IMG/VR virus record: IMGVR_UViG_3300021471_000026
Coordinates: 1 to 22,419 of that record
Length of the DNA stretch: 22,419 nt
From: a virus
Reading direction: 5' to 3' (one strand)
Positions 996-12,833 of this stretch are shown here, piece by piece. Position numbers and translations under genes: made by a program. The notes below the pieces were generated by a model. That model was not told where the DNA came from, did not search any database, and worked only from the letters and a program-made list of their open reading frames with translations. The first letter of the stretch is position 1; each line of letters begins with the position of its first letter.

Positions 996-1403
996 GTGAA
1001 TATTTTAATTAAGGTGCCGATTTTTGTCAAAATAACCAAGAAATCTAAAAAGAAGATTATTAAGGAAATCAAGGAGCAGCAGGAAGAAGTGAATAAGATA
1101 GTTGAGCAGGTTAAGTCTGAAAAAAGAACTTTCCTTCTAAAAACTCTGACTCCTGACAATCCACAAGTAAAAGCAAAGTTGCAGCAGTATGATATAACTA
1201 TTAAAAATCTCCAGAAGCAGAGTGCTGATATGAAAGGAATGATAGATACAATACAGAACTCTGAAGAAGGAAGTTTGTATCCTATAGGTCAACTGGATGC
1301 GGTTGTTGAAATCAAAAAAGGAGATAATCTGGACGAAAAAATCTCTGATTTTAAGATAATTGTAAACGAGAATAGAGATATTATAGAAATAATAGGAGAT
1401 TAA
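996..1403 (+). CDS. YlqD-like protein
   Basis: 135 residues from GTG at 996, after AAAGGAGGT at 982-990. The layout matches the Bacillota YlqD family: an N-terminal beta-strand (VPIFVKITKKSKKKI), a long central coiled coil (about residues 18-90), then a C-terminal beta domain with LYPIGQLDAVVEIKKGDNLD and a closing strand IIVNENRDIIEI. Family members are about 130 residues and in hosts sit near ribosome-maturation genes (rimM, trmD); their function is not established. A copy in a phage replication operon is unusual. The assignment is from remembered family pattern only; a generic coiled-coil protein is the alternative. Confidence 0.5.
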   Translation: MNILIKVPIFVKITKKSKKKIIKEIKEQQEEVNKIVEQVKSEKRTFLLKTLTPDNPQVKAKLQQYDITIKNLQKQSADMKGMIDTIQNSEEGSLYPIGQLDAVVEIKKGDNLDEKISDFKIIVNENRDIIEIIGD

Positions 1404-1945: not shown

Positions 1946-3236
1946 TGAAGAAGCAATTTTAAATTCTGGTTTACTTGATACAACAACTGAACAGGCTTAT
2001 CTGGGGGCAATTTTAATTGAGCCTGAACTAATACATGATGCAGAACTTAAGCCAGAAGACTTCTATAGTGCTGCCCATCAAGTTATATTTAAGGTCATGA
2101 AGAAACTTGCTAACAAAGAAATCCAGCCAGATTTGATTGCCCTCAACGATGAGCTTAAGAAAGAAGGGTTATTAGAGGAAGTTGGAGGATTCGGCTACCT
2201 TGCTTCTCTCTCATCCCTAACTCCAACTGCACTTAATTTCAAGACCTACGAAAAGATACTTAAAGACAAAGCAAGAAAGAGAAGGCTTCTGGAATCTATT
2301 ATGCAATCTTACGATGTTCTTGTAAAAGAACAGGATTTGGGGAAAGCTTATTCAATTCTTGACAGAGCTTTCTCTTTGGATGATGAGAAAAGAACTTTAA
2401 TGACTATGCGGGAAGCGATAATGGATTTCTCAAGAAGCTTGGAAAAGCAAGAGAATAAAGTTATTCTTCCTTCTGGTATTGATGAGATTGACAGAATAAT
2501 AGGAGGATTCGAGAGACAATCTCTTAATCTTATTGCGTGCAGACCTTCTGTTGGTAAGTCAACTACAGCTACGCAGATGATCGCTAATCAGCTGCTAAAC
2601 AGCGGGGAAGGTTTTTCAATCTTATTCTTCTCTCTTGAAATGAGTATTCAATCTGTTATGGAAAGAATGGTTAGTCAGATAACAAAAATTCCCCACAGAA
2701 AGATAAGATCAAGGAATTTAAGCAATGAAGATATGGAAAAGATAATCAACACTTTAAACACTCTTTACGACAAAAAATTAATTATCGACAACACTCCAAA
2801 TATTAGGACAGCTGACATTAGGAGAATTGCAAAGAAGGTAAAGAAGAAATATGGGTTAGACTATATCTATGTGGATTACATTCAAAGAATGCCTTATCCT
2901 GCAAAAAAAACTGTAGTCGAAGCTGTAACTGAAATATCAAGAGATTTGAAAAGTATTGCAGTAGAACTTGATGTTCCTGTAGTTGCTCTTTCACAGCTTA
3001 ATAGGAACTCTGAAGCAAGGGAAGAGCAAAGACCACAGATTTTTGATTTGCGAGATAGTGGAGCACTTGAGCAAGATGCGGATGTAGTAATTCTAATTTG
3101 GAGACCAACAGATAAAAATGGAATAAGACAAAGCAATGGAGAGTTTATTGTTGCGAAAAACAGAAACGGTGCAATAGGTGTTGTCAAGTTTGTATTTGAC
3201 GATGAGATTCTGTGGTTTGACACCAAAAGCGTATGA
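1938..3236 (+). CDS. dnaB: Replicative DNA helicase, DnaB family
   Basis: 432 residues, close to the usual bacterial DnaB length of about 450. Start TTG at 1938 has GGAGGG at 1928-1933. The N-terminal domain (about residues 15-120) shows the DnaB pattern EQAYLGAILIEPELI and FYSAAHQVIF. The RecA-like core carries Walker A in CRPSVGKST (around residues 199-208), motif H1a FFSLEMS (about 231), Walker B with VDYIQRM (about 313), H3 LSQLNRN (about 351), H4 RDSGALEQDADVV (about 372) and a basic C-terminal strand KNRNGAIG. It unwinds DNA at the phage fork as a hexamer. No DnaC/DnaI-type loader or primase is recognisable in the window, so those would be outside it or host-supplied. Confidence 0.95.
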   Translation: MIDEEAILNSGLLDTTTEQAYLGAILIEPELIHDAELKPEDFYSAAHQVIFKVMKKLANKEIQPDLIALNDELKKEGLLEEVGGFGYLASLSSLTPTALNFKTYEKILKDKARKRRLLESIMQSYDVLVKEQDLGKAYSILDRAFSLDDEKRTLMTMREAIMDFSRSLEKQENKVILPSGIDEIDRIIGGFERQSLNLIACRPSVGKSTTATQMIANQLLNSGEGFSILFFSLEMSIQSVMERMVSQITKIPHRKIRSRNLSNEDMEKIINTLNTLYDKKLIIDNTPNIRTADIRRIAKKVKKKYGLDYIYVDYIQRMPYPAKKTVVEAVTEISRDLKSIAVELDVPVVALSQLNRNSEAREEQRPQIFDLRDSGALEQDADVVILIWRPTDKNGIRQSNGEFIVAKNRNGAIGVVKFVFDDEILWFDTKSV

Positions 3237-3547
3237 GAGACGAGAAGATTATAAATATAGATATACTCCCAGAAAATGGAAAAGATAGAATTGAGTATGA
3301 GTCAAAAATTTACCAAGCGTCTCTTGGGTCTCCTATTTCTCAAATTTCTGTGTGGTCTTTAAAAATTCTAAAACAAGAAATAGAAAAATTACCAGAAGAC
3401 GAGAGAGAATTAATTTACTTGCACTTTTATGAAGGTATGGGTTATAGGCGAATGGCAAGAATTTTAAGAATGAGTAAAAATGGTGTTAAAAAGAAGATTA
3501 AGAGGATTCTTGAGAAACTTCGTTCCAGAATGGAAAGTGCCCTATAG
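3233..3547 (+). CDS. Sigma-70 region 4-like HTH transcription regulator
   Basis: 104 residues; ATG at 3233 overlaps the helicase stop as ATGA. The C-terminal half fits sigma-70 region 4: IEKLPEDERELIYLHFYEG, then GYRRMARILRMSKNGVKKK as helix-turn-helix, ending KRILEKLRSRM. There is no region 2, so it cannot be a complete sigma factor. The size and layout recall ArpU-type phage late-transcription regulators and other region-4-only proteins. At the end of the replication cluster, it is a plausible candidate for switching on the late operon of the opposite strand; that role is inference. Confidence 0.65.
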   Translation: MRDEKIINIDILPENGKDRIEYESKIYQASLGSPISQISVWSLKILKQEIEKLPEDERELIYLHFYEGMGYRRMARILRMSKNGVKKKIKRILEKLRSRMESAL

Positions 3548-3776: not shown

Positions 3777-4095
3777 AATTGTAAAAGTAGGTTATCATGT
3801 TTATGAAGTAAGAGAAGTTGAAGATTTGGAGAAAATTGCTCCAAAAAACTTGGAAGTAAGTGGAATTTGGGGCTTTGTTGATTTTGAAAAAGCTATTATA
3901 TGGATAAAGAAAGATATTGAAGACAGGTGGAAGAAAACAACCTTTATCCATGAATTACTGCACACTATTCTGGAAGAAGCTGGGATGCCACAAGATTCAA
4001 AAGCCGAAAAACTCATTCTGTCTATTCAGAATGTGTTTGCACAGGTTTTTGAGGATAACGATTTTTCTTTCTTAAGAGATAAAACAGGGGAGTGA
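3763..4095 (+). CDS. ImmA/IrrE-like zinc metallopeptidase domain protein
   Basis: 110 residues, ATG at 3763 with TAGGAG just upstream. The zincin motif HELLH is present (FIHELLHTILEEAGM; H63, E64, H67), preceded by a strand (AIIWIKKDIEDRW) and followed by a helix, which is the compact layout of ImmA/IrrE-type (DUF955-like) phage peptidases. Those family members cleave repressors (ImmA) or regulators such as DdrO (IrrE), but many phage copies have unknown targets, and no cognate repressor is visible here. The last ten bases, including TGA at 4093-4095, lie inside the 5' end of the tRNA-Gln gene. Confidence 0.65.
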   Translation: MKLPKIVKVGYHVYEVREVEDLEKIAPKNLEVSGIWGFVDFEKAIIWIKKDIEDRWKKTTFIHELLHTILEEAGMPQDSKAEKLILSIQNVFAQVFEDNDFSFLRDKTGE

Positions 4096-4159
4096 TCTAA
4101 TGGTAGGATACCAGACTTTGGATCTGGTAGTTGAGGTTCGAGTCCTCGCTCCCCTGCCA
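4086..4159 (+). tRNA. tRNA-Gln (anticodon UUG)
   Basis: A full cloverleaf can be drawn by hand. Acceptor AGGGGAG (4086-4092) pairs with CTCCCCT (4149-4155), then discriminator G and an encoded CCA (4157-4159). The D arm has an ATC/GAT stem and GG in its loop. Anticodon stem CCAGA/TCTGG encloses loop CTTTGGA, anticodon TTG. The T arm is TGAGG/CCTCG around TTCGAGT. The weak A1-U72 pair is typical of tRNA-Gln. The 5' end overlaps the stop of the upstream gene, so the tRNA must be cut out of the operon transcript or have its own promoter. Confidence 0.93.
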
Positions 4160-4855: not shown

Positions 4856-4931
4856 GGGGCAGTCAGGGTTTCGCCTTGTTGGGGGATTTTTCCCCCAGCA
4901 AGTAACAGGGGTTCAATTCCCCTCTGCTCCA
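4856..4931 (+). ncRNA. tRNA-like element with a rod hairpin in place of the D/anticodon arms
   Basis: The ends are those of a tRNA. Acceptor GGGGCAG (4856-4862) pairs with CTGCTCC (4924-4930) over seven pairs including one G.U, followed by discriminator-like A. A perfect T arm AGGGG/CCCCT encloses TTCAATT (4907-4923). Total length is 76, as in a normal tRNA. Between them no normal D or anticodon arm forms. Instead CTTGTTGGGGG (4875-4885) pairs with CCCCCAGCAAG (4892-4902), eleven pairs with one G.U, around a six-base loop ATTTTT. CCA is not encoded. It could be a decayed tRNA, a tRNA mimic, or a processing signal. Confidence 0.55.
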
Positions 4932-4949
4932 TCAAGAAAGGAGGTTAAT

Positions 4950-5177
4950 GTGAGTGAGTTAGAAGAGAGAATAGAAGATTTGGAGATTAGAGTAGAAGAT
5001 ATTGAAAATGTTTTAAACACAGAAGAATTGATTGAGTATATCGCCTATGTTATAAGGGAACCAAGAGATACTATAAAACTAAATAGTTATATGATTAATC
5101 TTCTTGTTGCTATAATTGACTGGCTTGCTGAACATGAAGAAGTTAAGAAAAGATTGAAGGAGGTTTTGAATAAATAA
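4950..5177 (+). CDS. Coiled-coil protein
   Basis: 75 residues from GTG at 4950, after AAAGGAGG at 4937-4944. An upstream in-frame ATG at 4854 was rejected because it would translate the tRNA-like element. The first 28 residues are a clear heptad coiled coil (SELEERIEDLEIRVEDIENV); the rest is helical with a hydrophobic stretch (YMINLLVAIIDWLAEHEE) that is too charged at its ends to be a confident membrane segment. Probably oligomeric. Function unknown. Confidence 0.6.
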   Translation: MSELEERIEDLEIRVEDIENVLNTEELIEYIAYVIREPRDTIKLNSYMINLLVAIIDWLAEHEEVKKRLKEVLNK

Positions 5178-5210
5178 ACTTGCGATAGTGGACAAAAGTG
5201 TCCACCAAGT
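5178..5210 (+). promoter_or_regulatory. Palindrome/hairpin between two early genes
   Basis: GTGGACA (5188-5194), loop AAAG, TGTCCAC (5199-5205) is a perfect seven-pair inverted repeat. Outside it ACTTG (5178-5182) pairs with CAAGT (5206-5210). It lies in the 61-base gap between two early genes. As DNA it could be an operator for a dimeric repressor (GGAC-N6-GTCC); as RNA it could be a stability or processing hairpin. No U-run follows, so it is not an intrinsic terminator. Confidence 0.45.
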
Positions 5211-5238
5211 CAAGTAAAATTGAGAAAAGGAGGTTTGT

Positions 5239-5592
5239 ATGGATTTTAACATTGTATCTTTAGTAATCGTAGTGGTAGGTATCATAGGTTATGCTCTTTA
5301 TAAAGCATATATGAGCCTACCGCCAAAGGAAAAGAAGAATGTTCAAGAGATTCTTAAGAATCTTAAAAAAGGAGTGAAAGCGTATCCCTATCTTGTAACT
5401 ATCCTAAAGCTCTGGGGAATTGATGTTGATGAAGGTTGGGAAAAAGCTTTTGATTTGCTCAAAAAGACCGCCGAAAAGAAAGGGATTGTGCTTACTGATG
5501 ACGAATGGAAAAAGATAGGGACAGAGATTAAAAAGCAATGGTATAAGCTCTACAAGGAGATTACAGGAGAAGAGTGGGAAGATTCTGAATAA
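5239..5592 (+). CDS. Membrane-anchored hypothetical protein
   Basis: 117 residues; ATG at 5239 after AAAGGAGGT. One N-terminal membrane segment (about residues 6-24, IVSLVIVVVGIIGYALYKAY), with no cleavage site seen, followed by a basic, helical soluble domain (PPKEKKNVQEILKNLKKGVK) and an acidic, Trp-containing tail (TGEEWEDSE). Positive residues after the segment predict the C-terminal part is cytoplasmic. It is the last + strand gene before the structured RNA. A single-TM phage protein of this size could be involved in superinfection exclusion or lysis timing, but nothing proves it. Confidence 0.55.
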   Translation: MDFNIVSLVIVVVGIIGYALYKAYMSLPPKEKKNVQEILKNLKKGVKAYPYLVTILKLWGIDVDEGWEKAFDLLKKTAEKKGIVLTDDEWKKIGTEIKKQWYKLYKEITGEEWEDSE

Positions 5593-5603
5593 ATTTTATT
5601 CAG
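5585..5603. repeat. 19-bp near-perfect palindrome over a stop codon
   Basis: CTGAATAAA, one central T, then TTTATTCAG: nine-base arms overlapping the TAA stop of the membrane protein gene. GAATAA occurs again at 5609-5614, so a second hairpin TTATTC/GAATAA (5596-5601 with 5609-5614) competes with it. It may protect the 3' end of the mRNA or mark an operator. It is not followed by a T-run. Confidence 0.4.
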
Positions 5604-5636
5604 TTTGTGAATAATCTTGCGTTGTAAACTTTTGGG

Positions 5637-6066
5637 TAGGTTTTACCTATGCTAAAAGGACGAAGACGGGTTGTGGGTTGGAGGGAAGCAGACTTTTTTG
5701 GGAGAGTTTACTGCGTAGCGGTGGCTCTCCTATCTGAAGACTGAACCTCTGTAAGGGGGTGTAAGCCTTCAGCAGAGTTCGCTTGAGGCGAACAAGGTTT
5801 CGGGGAGAAAGTGCGGGGCAGGAGCCTTCTCCCCTGTGGGTAGATGGGAGCCATATAAACCCATCCAAGAAGAGGACGGAAGGTCGCCACCTGCCCTGGA
5901 GTTTTTAGGGAGCGGTAAGTCCTGTGGTAAAGGGGTCTGCGGAATGCGGGAAATAAAGCCCTCACAGGGTCGCTCCCTCTCATGGAGGGGTTTGGGTTGT
6001 CGGAATGACAATCCTCTCCCTCCGCCATTACAAATAAAAATGCCCGCCATTTGTGCGGGCTTTTTG
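5637..6066 (+). ncRNA. Large GC-rich structured non-coding RNA, possibly GOLLD/ROOL-like class
   Basis: About 430 bases with no credible gene, 57-58% GC in two lines counted against about 33-42% in nearby genes. Helices found by eye: 5637-5641/5645-5649; 5701-5706/5725-5730; 5734-5739/5767-5772; 5777-5782/5788-5793; 5802-5809/5827-5834; 5843-5848/5858-5863 region; 5908-5914/5971-5977 enclosing 5921-5926/5963-5968, 5931-5934/5959-5962 and 5937-5940/5946-5949; 5984-5989/6018-6023 enclosing 5994-6001/6007-6014. GGGCAGG at 5816-5822, inside a hairpin loop, can pair with 5890-5896, a pseudoknot. A long-range alternative pairs 5680-5686 with 6017-6023. Several pairs are G.U on the + strand only, and the terminator is at the + strand 3' end, so the RNA reads rightward. 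The 5' end is uncertain; no good promoter was seen. Family membership is inference. Confidence 0.7.
6036..6066 (+). terminator. Bidirectional intrinsic terminator
   Basis: GCCCGC (6042-6047), loop CATTTGT, GCGGGC (6055-6060), then TTTTT (6061-6065) on the + strand. On the other strand the same hairpin is followed by ATTTTTATTT, so it also ends the late operon arriving from the right. It separates the two convergent transcription blocks and defines the 3' end of the structured RNA. Confidence 0.9.
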
Positions 6067-6080
6067 TATTTTATACGACA

Positions 6081-6114
6081 GTATCATATACAATTTTCCA
6101 AATTTGTATGATAC
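6081..6114. repeat. 34-bp inverted repeat, lox-like geometry
   Basis: Arms GTATCATATACAA (6081-6093) and ATTTGTATGATAC (6102-6114) flank the eight-base centre TTTTCCAA. The outer eight bases are perfectly inverted and ten of thirteen arm positions match. The 13-8-13 geometry is that of tyrosine-recombinase sites such as loxP; a dif-like or attachment site, or a plain operator, are alternatives. It stands in the convergent intergenic gap. No recombinase gene is in the window. Confidence 0.35.
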
Positions 6115-6152
6115 CATTAGTCAATTTTGGGACAATTTTGTCAGTTAGATGC

Positions 6153-6173
6153 ACATATTTTATTAAAATATGT
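6153..6173. repeat. AT-rich palindrome between late operon end and terminator
   Basis: ACATATTTT and AAAATATGT are perfect nine-base arms around ATT. It lies about 12 bases past the stop of the last late gene. Hairpin stability is low (seven of nine pairs are A-T), so an mRNA 3'-end or protein-binding role is more plausible than termination. Just to its left CAATTTTG occurs twice (6122-6129 and 6133-6140). Confidence 0.4.
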
Positions 6174-6184
6174 TTATTTGTTCT

Positions 6185-6358
6185 TTAGTCATCTCTTATT
6201 CCTGTAACAGCTTCTAAAGATAATCTTAGAGCTCCTTCTGTTTCTTCTTCAAGTTCTTTTAATTCCTTATCTGTAAGCTTTTTTAATTTCTTTCTTTTCT
6301 CTCTAAATTCTTCTATAATCTTTTTTAATTTTTTAAGTTGCTCTTTAGTAAAATTCAT
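6185..6358 (-). CDS. 57-residue charged helical protein, last gene of late operon
   Basis: Read on the minus strand, ATG at 6358-6356 follows the holin stop by one base (TGA-A-ATG), with AAAGG about seven bases upstream. The frame runs 57 codons to TAA at 6187-6185. The protein begins MNFTKEQLKKLKKIIEEF and is almost wholly charged helix with heptad-like spacing (KRKKLKKLTDKELKELEEET). The stop-start spacing, the ribosome binding site and the codon pattern support a real gene. Position right after the holin suggests a lysis-associated or late regulatory role, but the sequence matches nothing I recognise. Confidence 0.6.
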   Translation of the reverse strand: MNFTKEQLKKLKKIIEEFREKRKKLKKLTDKELKELEEETEGALRLSLEAVTGIRDD

Positions 6359-12221: not shown

Positions 12222-12833
12222 TTACCCCACTCTATATTCTGGTGCTATAATAGTCCCACTTGTAGGTCTGATAATACTCTTGATTTCCGTTGTTGAAGAA
12301 CCTGATGCACAAGGATAAAGTTTCATAGTGTTGAGCCATTCTGTCCACACGGGGGAGGTTTCTGACCCACCCGCTGTGGCATCATTAAAATAGAAATAAA
12401 TATTAGGAGCAGTTCCGCTATATGTTGCGACTACTTCTAATGTGAATTGATGATCTGAAGTTCCGATACCACCCAATGTAGCGTCAGATGGGACCTCTAA
12501 AGCTAAATTGAAATACTGCGTCTGGTTTGTATTTGGAAATAGCAAATACGCATCATCGCCTTTTAGTCTGTTTGGAGAAGCTCCGCCAGAAGTTTGAGAT
12601 ACACTTGAAGCCCAGTTTGAGGAAGGAGCACCAGATGTGGTTTCTATTGCTACTACCATAGAAACATTACCATTACCTGTAGTTCCTGCTAAAACTTCGT
12701 GAGAAGTAGAGTTTGTTGAAGAATCATCCCACGCTTTTAATTTAGGCGCAGAGTCTATTGTTTGGTCAAAATAGATTTTGAATACATACTGATACGCATT
12801 GTTTCCTGCACCAAAAACCTTGTTATATGCCAT
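12222..12833 (-). CDS. Tail protein downstream of tape measure
   Basis: 203 residues, ATG at 12833 with GAGGTGAG upstream. Ser/Thr/Asn-rich, beta-type sequence with no Cys cluster and one Cys near the C-terminus (YPCASGSSTTEI). In siphophages the gene after the tape measure usually encodes the distal tail protein, so it could be the structural equivalent, but no Dit signature is visible. Immunoglobulin- or jelly-roll-like strands are likely. Confidence 0.55.
   Translation of the reverse strand: MAYNKVFGAGNNAYQYVFKIYFDQTIDSAPKLKAWDDSSTNSTSHEVLAGTTGNGNVSMVVAIETTSGAPSSNWASSVSQTSGGASPNRLKGDDAYLLFPNTNQTQYFNLALEVPSDATLGGIGTSDHQFTLEVVATYSGTAPNIYFYFNDATAGGSETSPVWTEWLNTMKLYPCASGSSTTEIKSIIRPTSGTIIAPEYRVG

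What the first reader, a model, noticed from the sequence alone, without database searches (positions are those of the whole stretch)
5637..6066. Candidate new large structured RNA at the junction of two convergent phage gene blocks
Some 430 bases hold no credible gene, are far richer in GC than the flanking genes, and contain at least nine perfect or near-perfect helices, several nested (5908-5977 encloses three further stems). One hairpin loop (GGGCAGG, 5816-5822) can pair with 5890-5896 to make a pseudoknot. G.U pairs exist on the + strand only, and the 3' end is an intrinsic terminator. GOLLD and ROOL RNAs are known giant RNAs found in phages near tRNA genes; this one is near two tRNA or tRNA-like genes. 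It could be a member, a divergent relative, or a new class. Its function in the lytic cycle would be unknown.
Basis: partly seen in the sequence, partly recalled or inferred. Interest (0 to 1): 0.85.

Follow-up and report, generated by a model that had tools for sequence, protein, structure and literature searches.

The report
Orphan large structured phage RNA candidate
A phage DNA fragment, possibly from a heat-loving bacterium's virus, carries between two converging gene blocks about 345-430 bases that look like a gene for a large folded RNA belonging to no catalogued family; only one copy could be found, so its structure and function remain unproven.

Summary
The gap 5593-6184 is the only long intergenic gap in a tightly packed 36.6% GC phage fragment. 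Its core (5660-6030) is 55% GC, has no credible gene (negative codon scores, no Shine-Dalgarno, no Pfam match) and ends in a bidirectional intrinsic terminator (6042-6060). It folds more stably than every dinucleotide shuffle (z about -3 to -5) and holds the five most stable of 297 windows. The window's other leading short GC peaks fall on its two recognisable RNA genes (tRNA-Gln; a tmRNA-like element), so the GC peak itself points to an RNA gene.

The + strand G.U asymmetry is what base composition predicts. The pseudoknot helix is well supported (P 0.99), but the nested fold already contains it.

No Rfam family matches (GOLLD, ROOL, OLE, group I, RNase P also tested singly). No homologue was found in phages, plasmids, IMG/VR probes or 398 Bacillota genomes, and the phage has no close relative found. 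Covariation is therefore untested.

Best reading: a terminator-ended structured RNA, probably cut from the left operon's transcript and acting in trans, of the GOLLD/ROOL kind but not a detectable member. Its specific function is inference only.

The parts
5593..5679 (+). AT-rich 5' leader after the stop codon, with two hairpins (5595-5614 and 5629-5659); likely processing region; no sigma-70-like promoter found
   Evidence: folds, promoter scan; processing is inference
5680..6023 (+). GC-rich structured core, a multibranch domain closed by 5680-5686/6017-6023 (P 0.87 at 37 C, 0.82 at 65 C)
5689..5743 (+). arm 1 (5699-5707/5724-5732 and 5709-5714/5718-5723, P above 0.9)
5748..5776 (+). arm 2, hairpin capped by GUAA (GNRA type); P about 0.7, not kept at 65 C
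5777..5793 (+). arm 3, short hairpin GUUCGC/GCGAAC (P about 0.5-0.65)
5907..5978 (+). arm 5, outer helix 5907-5915/5970-5978 enclosing three further stems; apical loop C(GGAAU)G
5994..6014 (+). arm 6, hairpin with the same apical loop C(GGAAU)G
6042..6066 (.). bidirectional intrinsic terminator (6 G-C pairs, T-runs on both sides), 3' end of the RNA

Best explanation
The gap between the converging gene blocks encodes a large structured non-coding RNA on the + strand (core 5680-6023, 3' end about 6066). It is most likely made as the last part of the left (replication) operon's transcript, because no promoter is visible in front of it. It would be released by cutting between the stop codon at 5592 and about 5680, ended by the terminator, and kept intact by its compact GC-rich multibranch fold. 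It then most likely accumulates and acts in trans during infection, as a scaffold, an RNA assembly or a decoy for a host or phage factor, in the manner supposed for phage RNAs such as ROOL and GOLLD. Shown by computation: a non-coding, unusually stable, terminator-ended segment. Inferred: transcription, processing, accumulation and trans action.
For: Only long gap in the window, and GC-rich like the window's two recognised RNA genes; MFE below all shuffles, z -3.0 to -5.0; the five most stable of 297 windows; excess of well-defined helices; main helices keep their probability at 65 C; no coding signal; terminator at the 3' end. Long GC-rich gaps in AT-rich genomes are the standard signature of structured ncRNAs (PMC11109978).
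Against: A single sequence: no homologue, so no covariation. Both strands fold equally well relative to shuffles. Ensemble entropy and diversity are lower than the shuffle mean, but not significantly (15-16% of shuffles). No promoter and no expression data. Several other windows reach similar z-scores.
Confidence: 0.55

Rival explanations
1. The structured segment is a long 3' UTR and insulator of the left operon. It protects the upstream mRNA from 3' decay and, with the bidirectional terminator, separates the two converging transcription units; it has no trans-acting product.
For: It directly follows the stop codon at 5592, has no promoter of its own, and lies at the convergence point with a bidirectional terminator.
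Against: Protection or insulation needs only a short hairpin; 345 nt with many well-defined helices is far more than needed in so compact a genome.
Confidence: 0.22
2. It is a DNA-level element (origin, packaging or recombination site, or single-strand hairpins) whose stems act in DNA.
For: The two strands have equal z-scores; it lies where cumulative GC skew peaks.
Against: No iterons and only three weak two-copy repeats; the skew turn is explained by the change in gene direction; the GC peak matches the RNA genes of the window.
Confidence: 0.1
3. It is decayed or foreign DNA of higher GC (for example a remnant gene on the - strand) that folds well only by composition.
For: The 106-aa - strand ORF is longer than in 98% of shuffles.
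Against: Codon scores are negative and there is no Shine-Dalgarno, no Pfam match and no similar DNA found; folding exceeds dinucleotide shuffles, which keep composition.
Confidence: 0.08
4. It is a diverged member of a known large RNA family (ROOL, GOLLD, OLE, RNase P, group I intron) beyond the reach of the models.
For: Size, phage setting and nearby tRNA-type genes resemble ROOL and GOLLD (PMC12286853).
Against: No match in cmscan with relaxed filters at E<=10 nor in single-family scans; RNase P only at 6 bits.
Confidence: 0.05

Closest known systems
ROOL RNA (RF03087)
   Same: Large structured RNA of phages and prophages, often near tRNA genes, function unknown (PMC12286853)
   Different: No match to the 574-position model; the core here is about 345 nt; oligomer state unknown
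GOLLD RNA (RF02032)
   Same: Large ornate phage/prophage RNA, often near tRNA islands (PMC12286853)
   Different: No match to the 416-position model; many GOLLDs exceed 800 nt; no tRNA lies inside the RNA here
OLE RNA (RF01071)
   Same: Large RNA of extremophilic bacteria (own knowledge)
   Different: No match to the 616-position model; OLE is a chromosomal RNA (own knowledge)

Membership tests
ROOL | match to covariance model RF03087 | tested here: not met
   no match at E<=10; no positive control among the 14 control genomes
ROOL | phage or prophage setting near tRNA genes | tested here: met
   phage genes; tRNA-Gln and tmRNA-like element 1.5 and 0.75 kb upstream
ROOL / GOLLD | assembly into a homo-oligomeric RNA cage | not testable with these tools
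   needs cryo-EM, native gels or mass photometry
GOLLD | match to the conserved 3' region (model RF02032) | tested here: not met
   no match at E<=10
OLE | match to covariance model RF01071 | tested here: not met
   no match at E<=10; no positive control
Group I intron | match to RF00028 and interruption of a gene | tested here: not met
   no match; lies between complete convergent genes
RNase P RNA | match to RF00010 | tested here: not met
   best 6 bits against a cut-off of 100
New structured RNA class | several homologues with covarying helices | not testable with these tools
New structured RNA class | non-coding, GC-rich gap that folds better than shuffles | tested here: met

The most novel reading that the evidence does not exclude
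A new class of large, trans-acting phage RNA, expressed from the same operon as a tRNA and a free-standing tmRNA tRNA-like domain, and acting with them on the host's translation or ribosome-rescue machinery.
Probability: 0.12. Interest if true: 0.85.

Novelty: new variant of a known kind. Interest (0 to 1): 0.5.

Why it matters
Large structured phage RNAs are few and their functions are poorly understood; ROOL and GOLLD were reported only in 2025 to form RNA-only cages (PMC12286853). A further, apparently unrelated and compact candidate of about 345 nt, whose main helices are predicted to hold at 65 C, would be a tractable object for structure and function work and would suggest that more such RNA classes remain uncatalogued in phages.

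Tried and rejected
Homologue hunts that found nothing: blastn with words of 11 in phages and plasmids, only terminator-sized or chance matches; two translated frames of the region as degenerate probes in IMG/VR; an exact 18-mer, four contigs of higher GC with no similarity beyond the probe; 398 Bacillota genomes. Protein routes to related phages: amidase, DnaB, major capsid protein, tail tube and a tail protein gave only relatives at about 35% identity or less. A GC island downstream of DnaB in L003 looked like a syntenic RNA but is a collagen-like repeat gene. Group I and RNase P resemblances seen by eye were rejected by covariance models. Accession RF01998 was tried for GOLLD by mistake; it is a group II intron domain, and GOLLD is RF02032. 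A first sliding-window folding run timed out.

Full report
Setting. The window is a whole 22,419-base IMG/VR virus record, possibly a fragment. It encodes a leftward structural and lysis block (major head protein, tail tube, a long protein that I take for the tape measure, amidase) and a rightward block with a Holliday-junction resolvase, a DnaB-type helicase and a sigma-region-4 protein. The blocks converge at about 6066. A YlqD-family protein, to my knowledge mainly a Bacillota family, and a distant match to a Thermoanaerobacterium phage hint at a thermophilic Bacillota host; this is inference. High GC in the RNA genes of an AT-rich genome would fit a thermophile, since the GC of structural RNAs rises with growth temperature (PMC8827189, abstract).

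The observation. Between the stop codon at 5592 and the gene at 6185 lies the only intergenic gap longer than 110 nt. GC at 5660-6030 is 55.3% against 36.6% overall. The best non-overlapping 74-nt GC peaks are three in this region, then 4857-4930 (the tmRNA-like element), a fourth in this region, then 4085-4158 (tRNA-Gln), level with a coding site at 12307-12380. The GC peaks thus pick out the recognisable RNA genes of this phage, which makes an RNA gene the natural reading. This is the logic of GC-rich intergenic-region searches for ncRNAs (PMC11109978).

Not coding. Four ORFs of 73-106 aa lie in the region. Codon scores trained on 32 phage genes are negative and equal to shuffles, Shine-Dalgarno sequences are absent although most genes here have strong ones, and Pfam finds nothing. 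The 106-aa ORF is longer than in 98% of shuffles; this is the one discordant point.

Folding. The 478-nt stretch folds at -194.3 kcal/mol against -162.2 +/- 6.5 for shuffles, z -5.0; the core without the terminator has z -3.0 to -3.5. Of 297 windows of 150 nt the five most stable lie here, though several other windows reach comparable z-scores. Nine helices of at least 6 bp with P>0.7 compare with 4.3 +/- 2.2 in shuffles; ensemble entropy is lower than average but not significantly so. The model is a multibranch domain closed by 5680-5686/6017-6023 with six arms; the closing helix and the main helices of arms 1, 4, 5 and 6 keep a probability of 0.6 or more, mostly above 0.8, at 65 C. Two arms carry the identical loop C(GGAAU)G, and that heptamer occurs nowhere else in the window, although two copies in the window are not rarer than chance (29 of 100 shuffles).

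The preference for the + strand is a composition effect: observed strand difference -32.1 kcal/mol, shuffles -30.7 +/- 6.0. The - strand has as strong a z-score. Strand assignment therefore rests on gene order and on the terminator, which is itself bidirectional. The pseudoknot helix 5814-5822/5890-5898 is among the most certain of all, but the nested fold contains it. The competing arrangement scores no better once a pseudoknot penalty is charged, and 6.7% of shuffles contain a comparable configuration.

Families. cmscan of the region against all 4227 Rfam families, E<=10, gave matches mainly at the terminator, all far below their gathering scores. Single-family scans for ROOL, GOLLD, OLE, group I intron and RNase P were negative or trivial. 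Those for ROOL and OLE had no positive control, and that for GOLLD none above the cut-off.

Homologues. None was found by any route. No close relatives of the phage's proteins were found either, so the orphan status probably reflects sparse sampling of this lineage and says little about the age or spread of the RNA. Covariation, the decisive test, was not possible.

How it most likely works. No sigma-70-like promoter was found before the core, so I infer co-transcription with the left operon, cutting near the hairpins at 5595-5659, termination at about 6066 and survival of the compact core as a stable RNA. Size, phage setting, tRNA neighbours and an elaborate fold are traits of ROOL and GOLLD (PMC12286853), so action in trans as a scaffold or assembly is the leading guess. 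A structured 3' UTR is the main rival. I put 'real structured RNA' at about 0.8 and 'stable trans-acting RNA' at about 0.55.

Noticed in passing
window 4856-4934 (+): Rfam tmRNA match above the gathering score (51.3 bits, E 9.7e-18) with no tag or mRNA-like part: acceptor GGGGCAG/CTGCTCC with a G3.U70 pair, tmRNA-like D-loop, an 11-bp P2 closed directly by a 6-nt loop, T-arm. A free-standing tmRNA tRNA-like domain; it could be charged with alanine and compete in trans-translation (inference). It folds with z -4.5; an exact 18-mer of its 5' end is absent from IMG/VR. This may deserve its own study.
   Followed up: partly
window 5188-5205 (+): Perfect 7-bp hairpin GTGGACA-AAAG-TGTCCAC between two genes of the left operon; the 150-nt window around it (5176-5325) has the most extreme folding z-score of the whole record (-6.2). 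Possible processing or regulatory site.
   Followed up: no
window 5937-5949 and 5994-6014 (+): Two arms of the RNA end in the identical loop C(GGAAU)G, within an imperfect 14-nt repeat; possible shared protein-binding or tertiary-contact site.
   Followed up: partly
window 996-1403 (+): A YlqD-family protein (PF11068, E 1.8e-12) in a phage replication block; unusual to my knowledge.
   Followed up: no
window 3233-3547 (+): A 104-aa protein consisting mainly of sigma-70 region 4; a possible phage transcription switch between the two blocks.
   Followed up: no
L003 12522-13901 (-): A gene with a long collagen-like GPT-type repeat in an AT-rich viral contig that also holds a group II intron.
   Followed up: no
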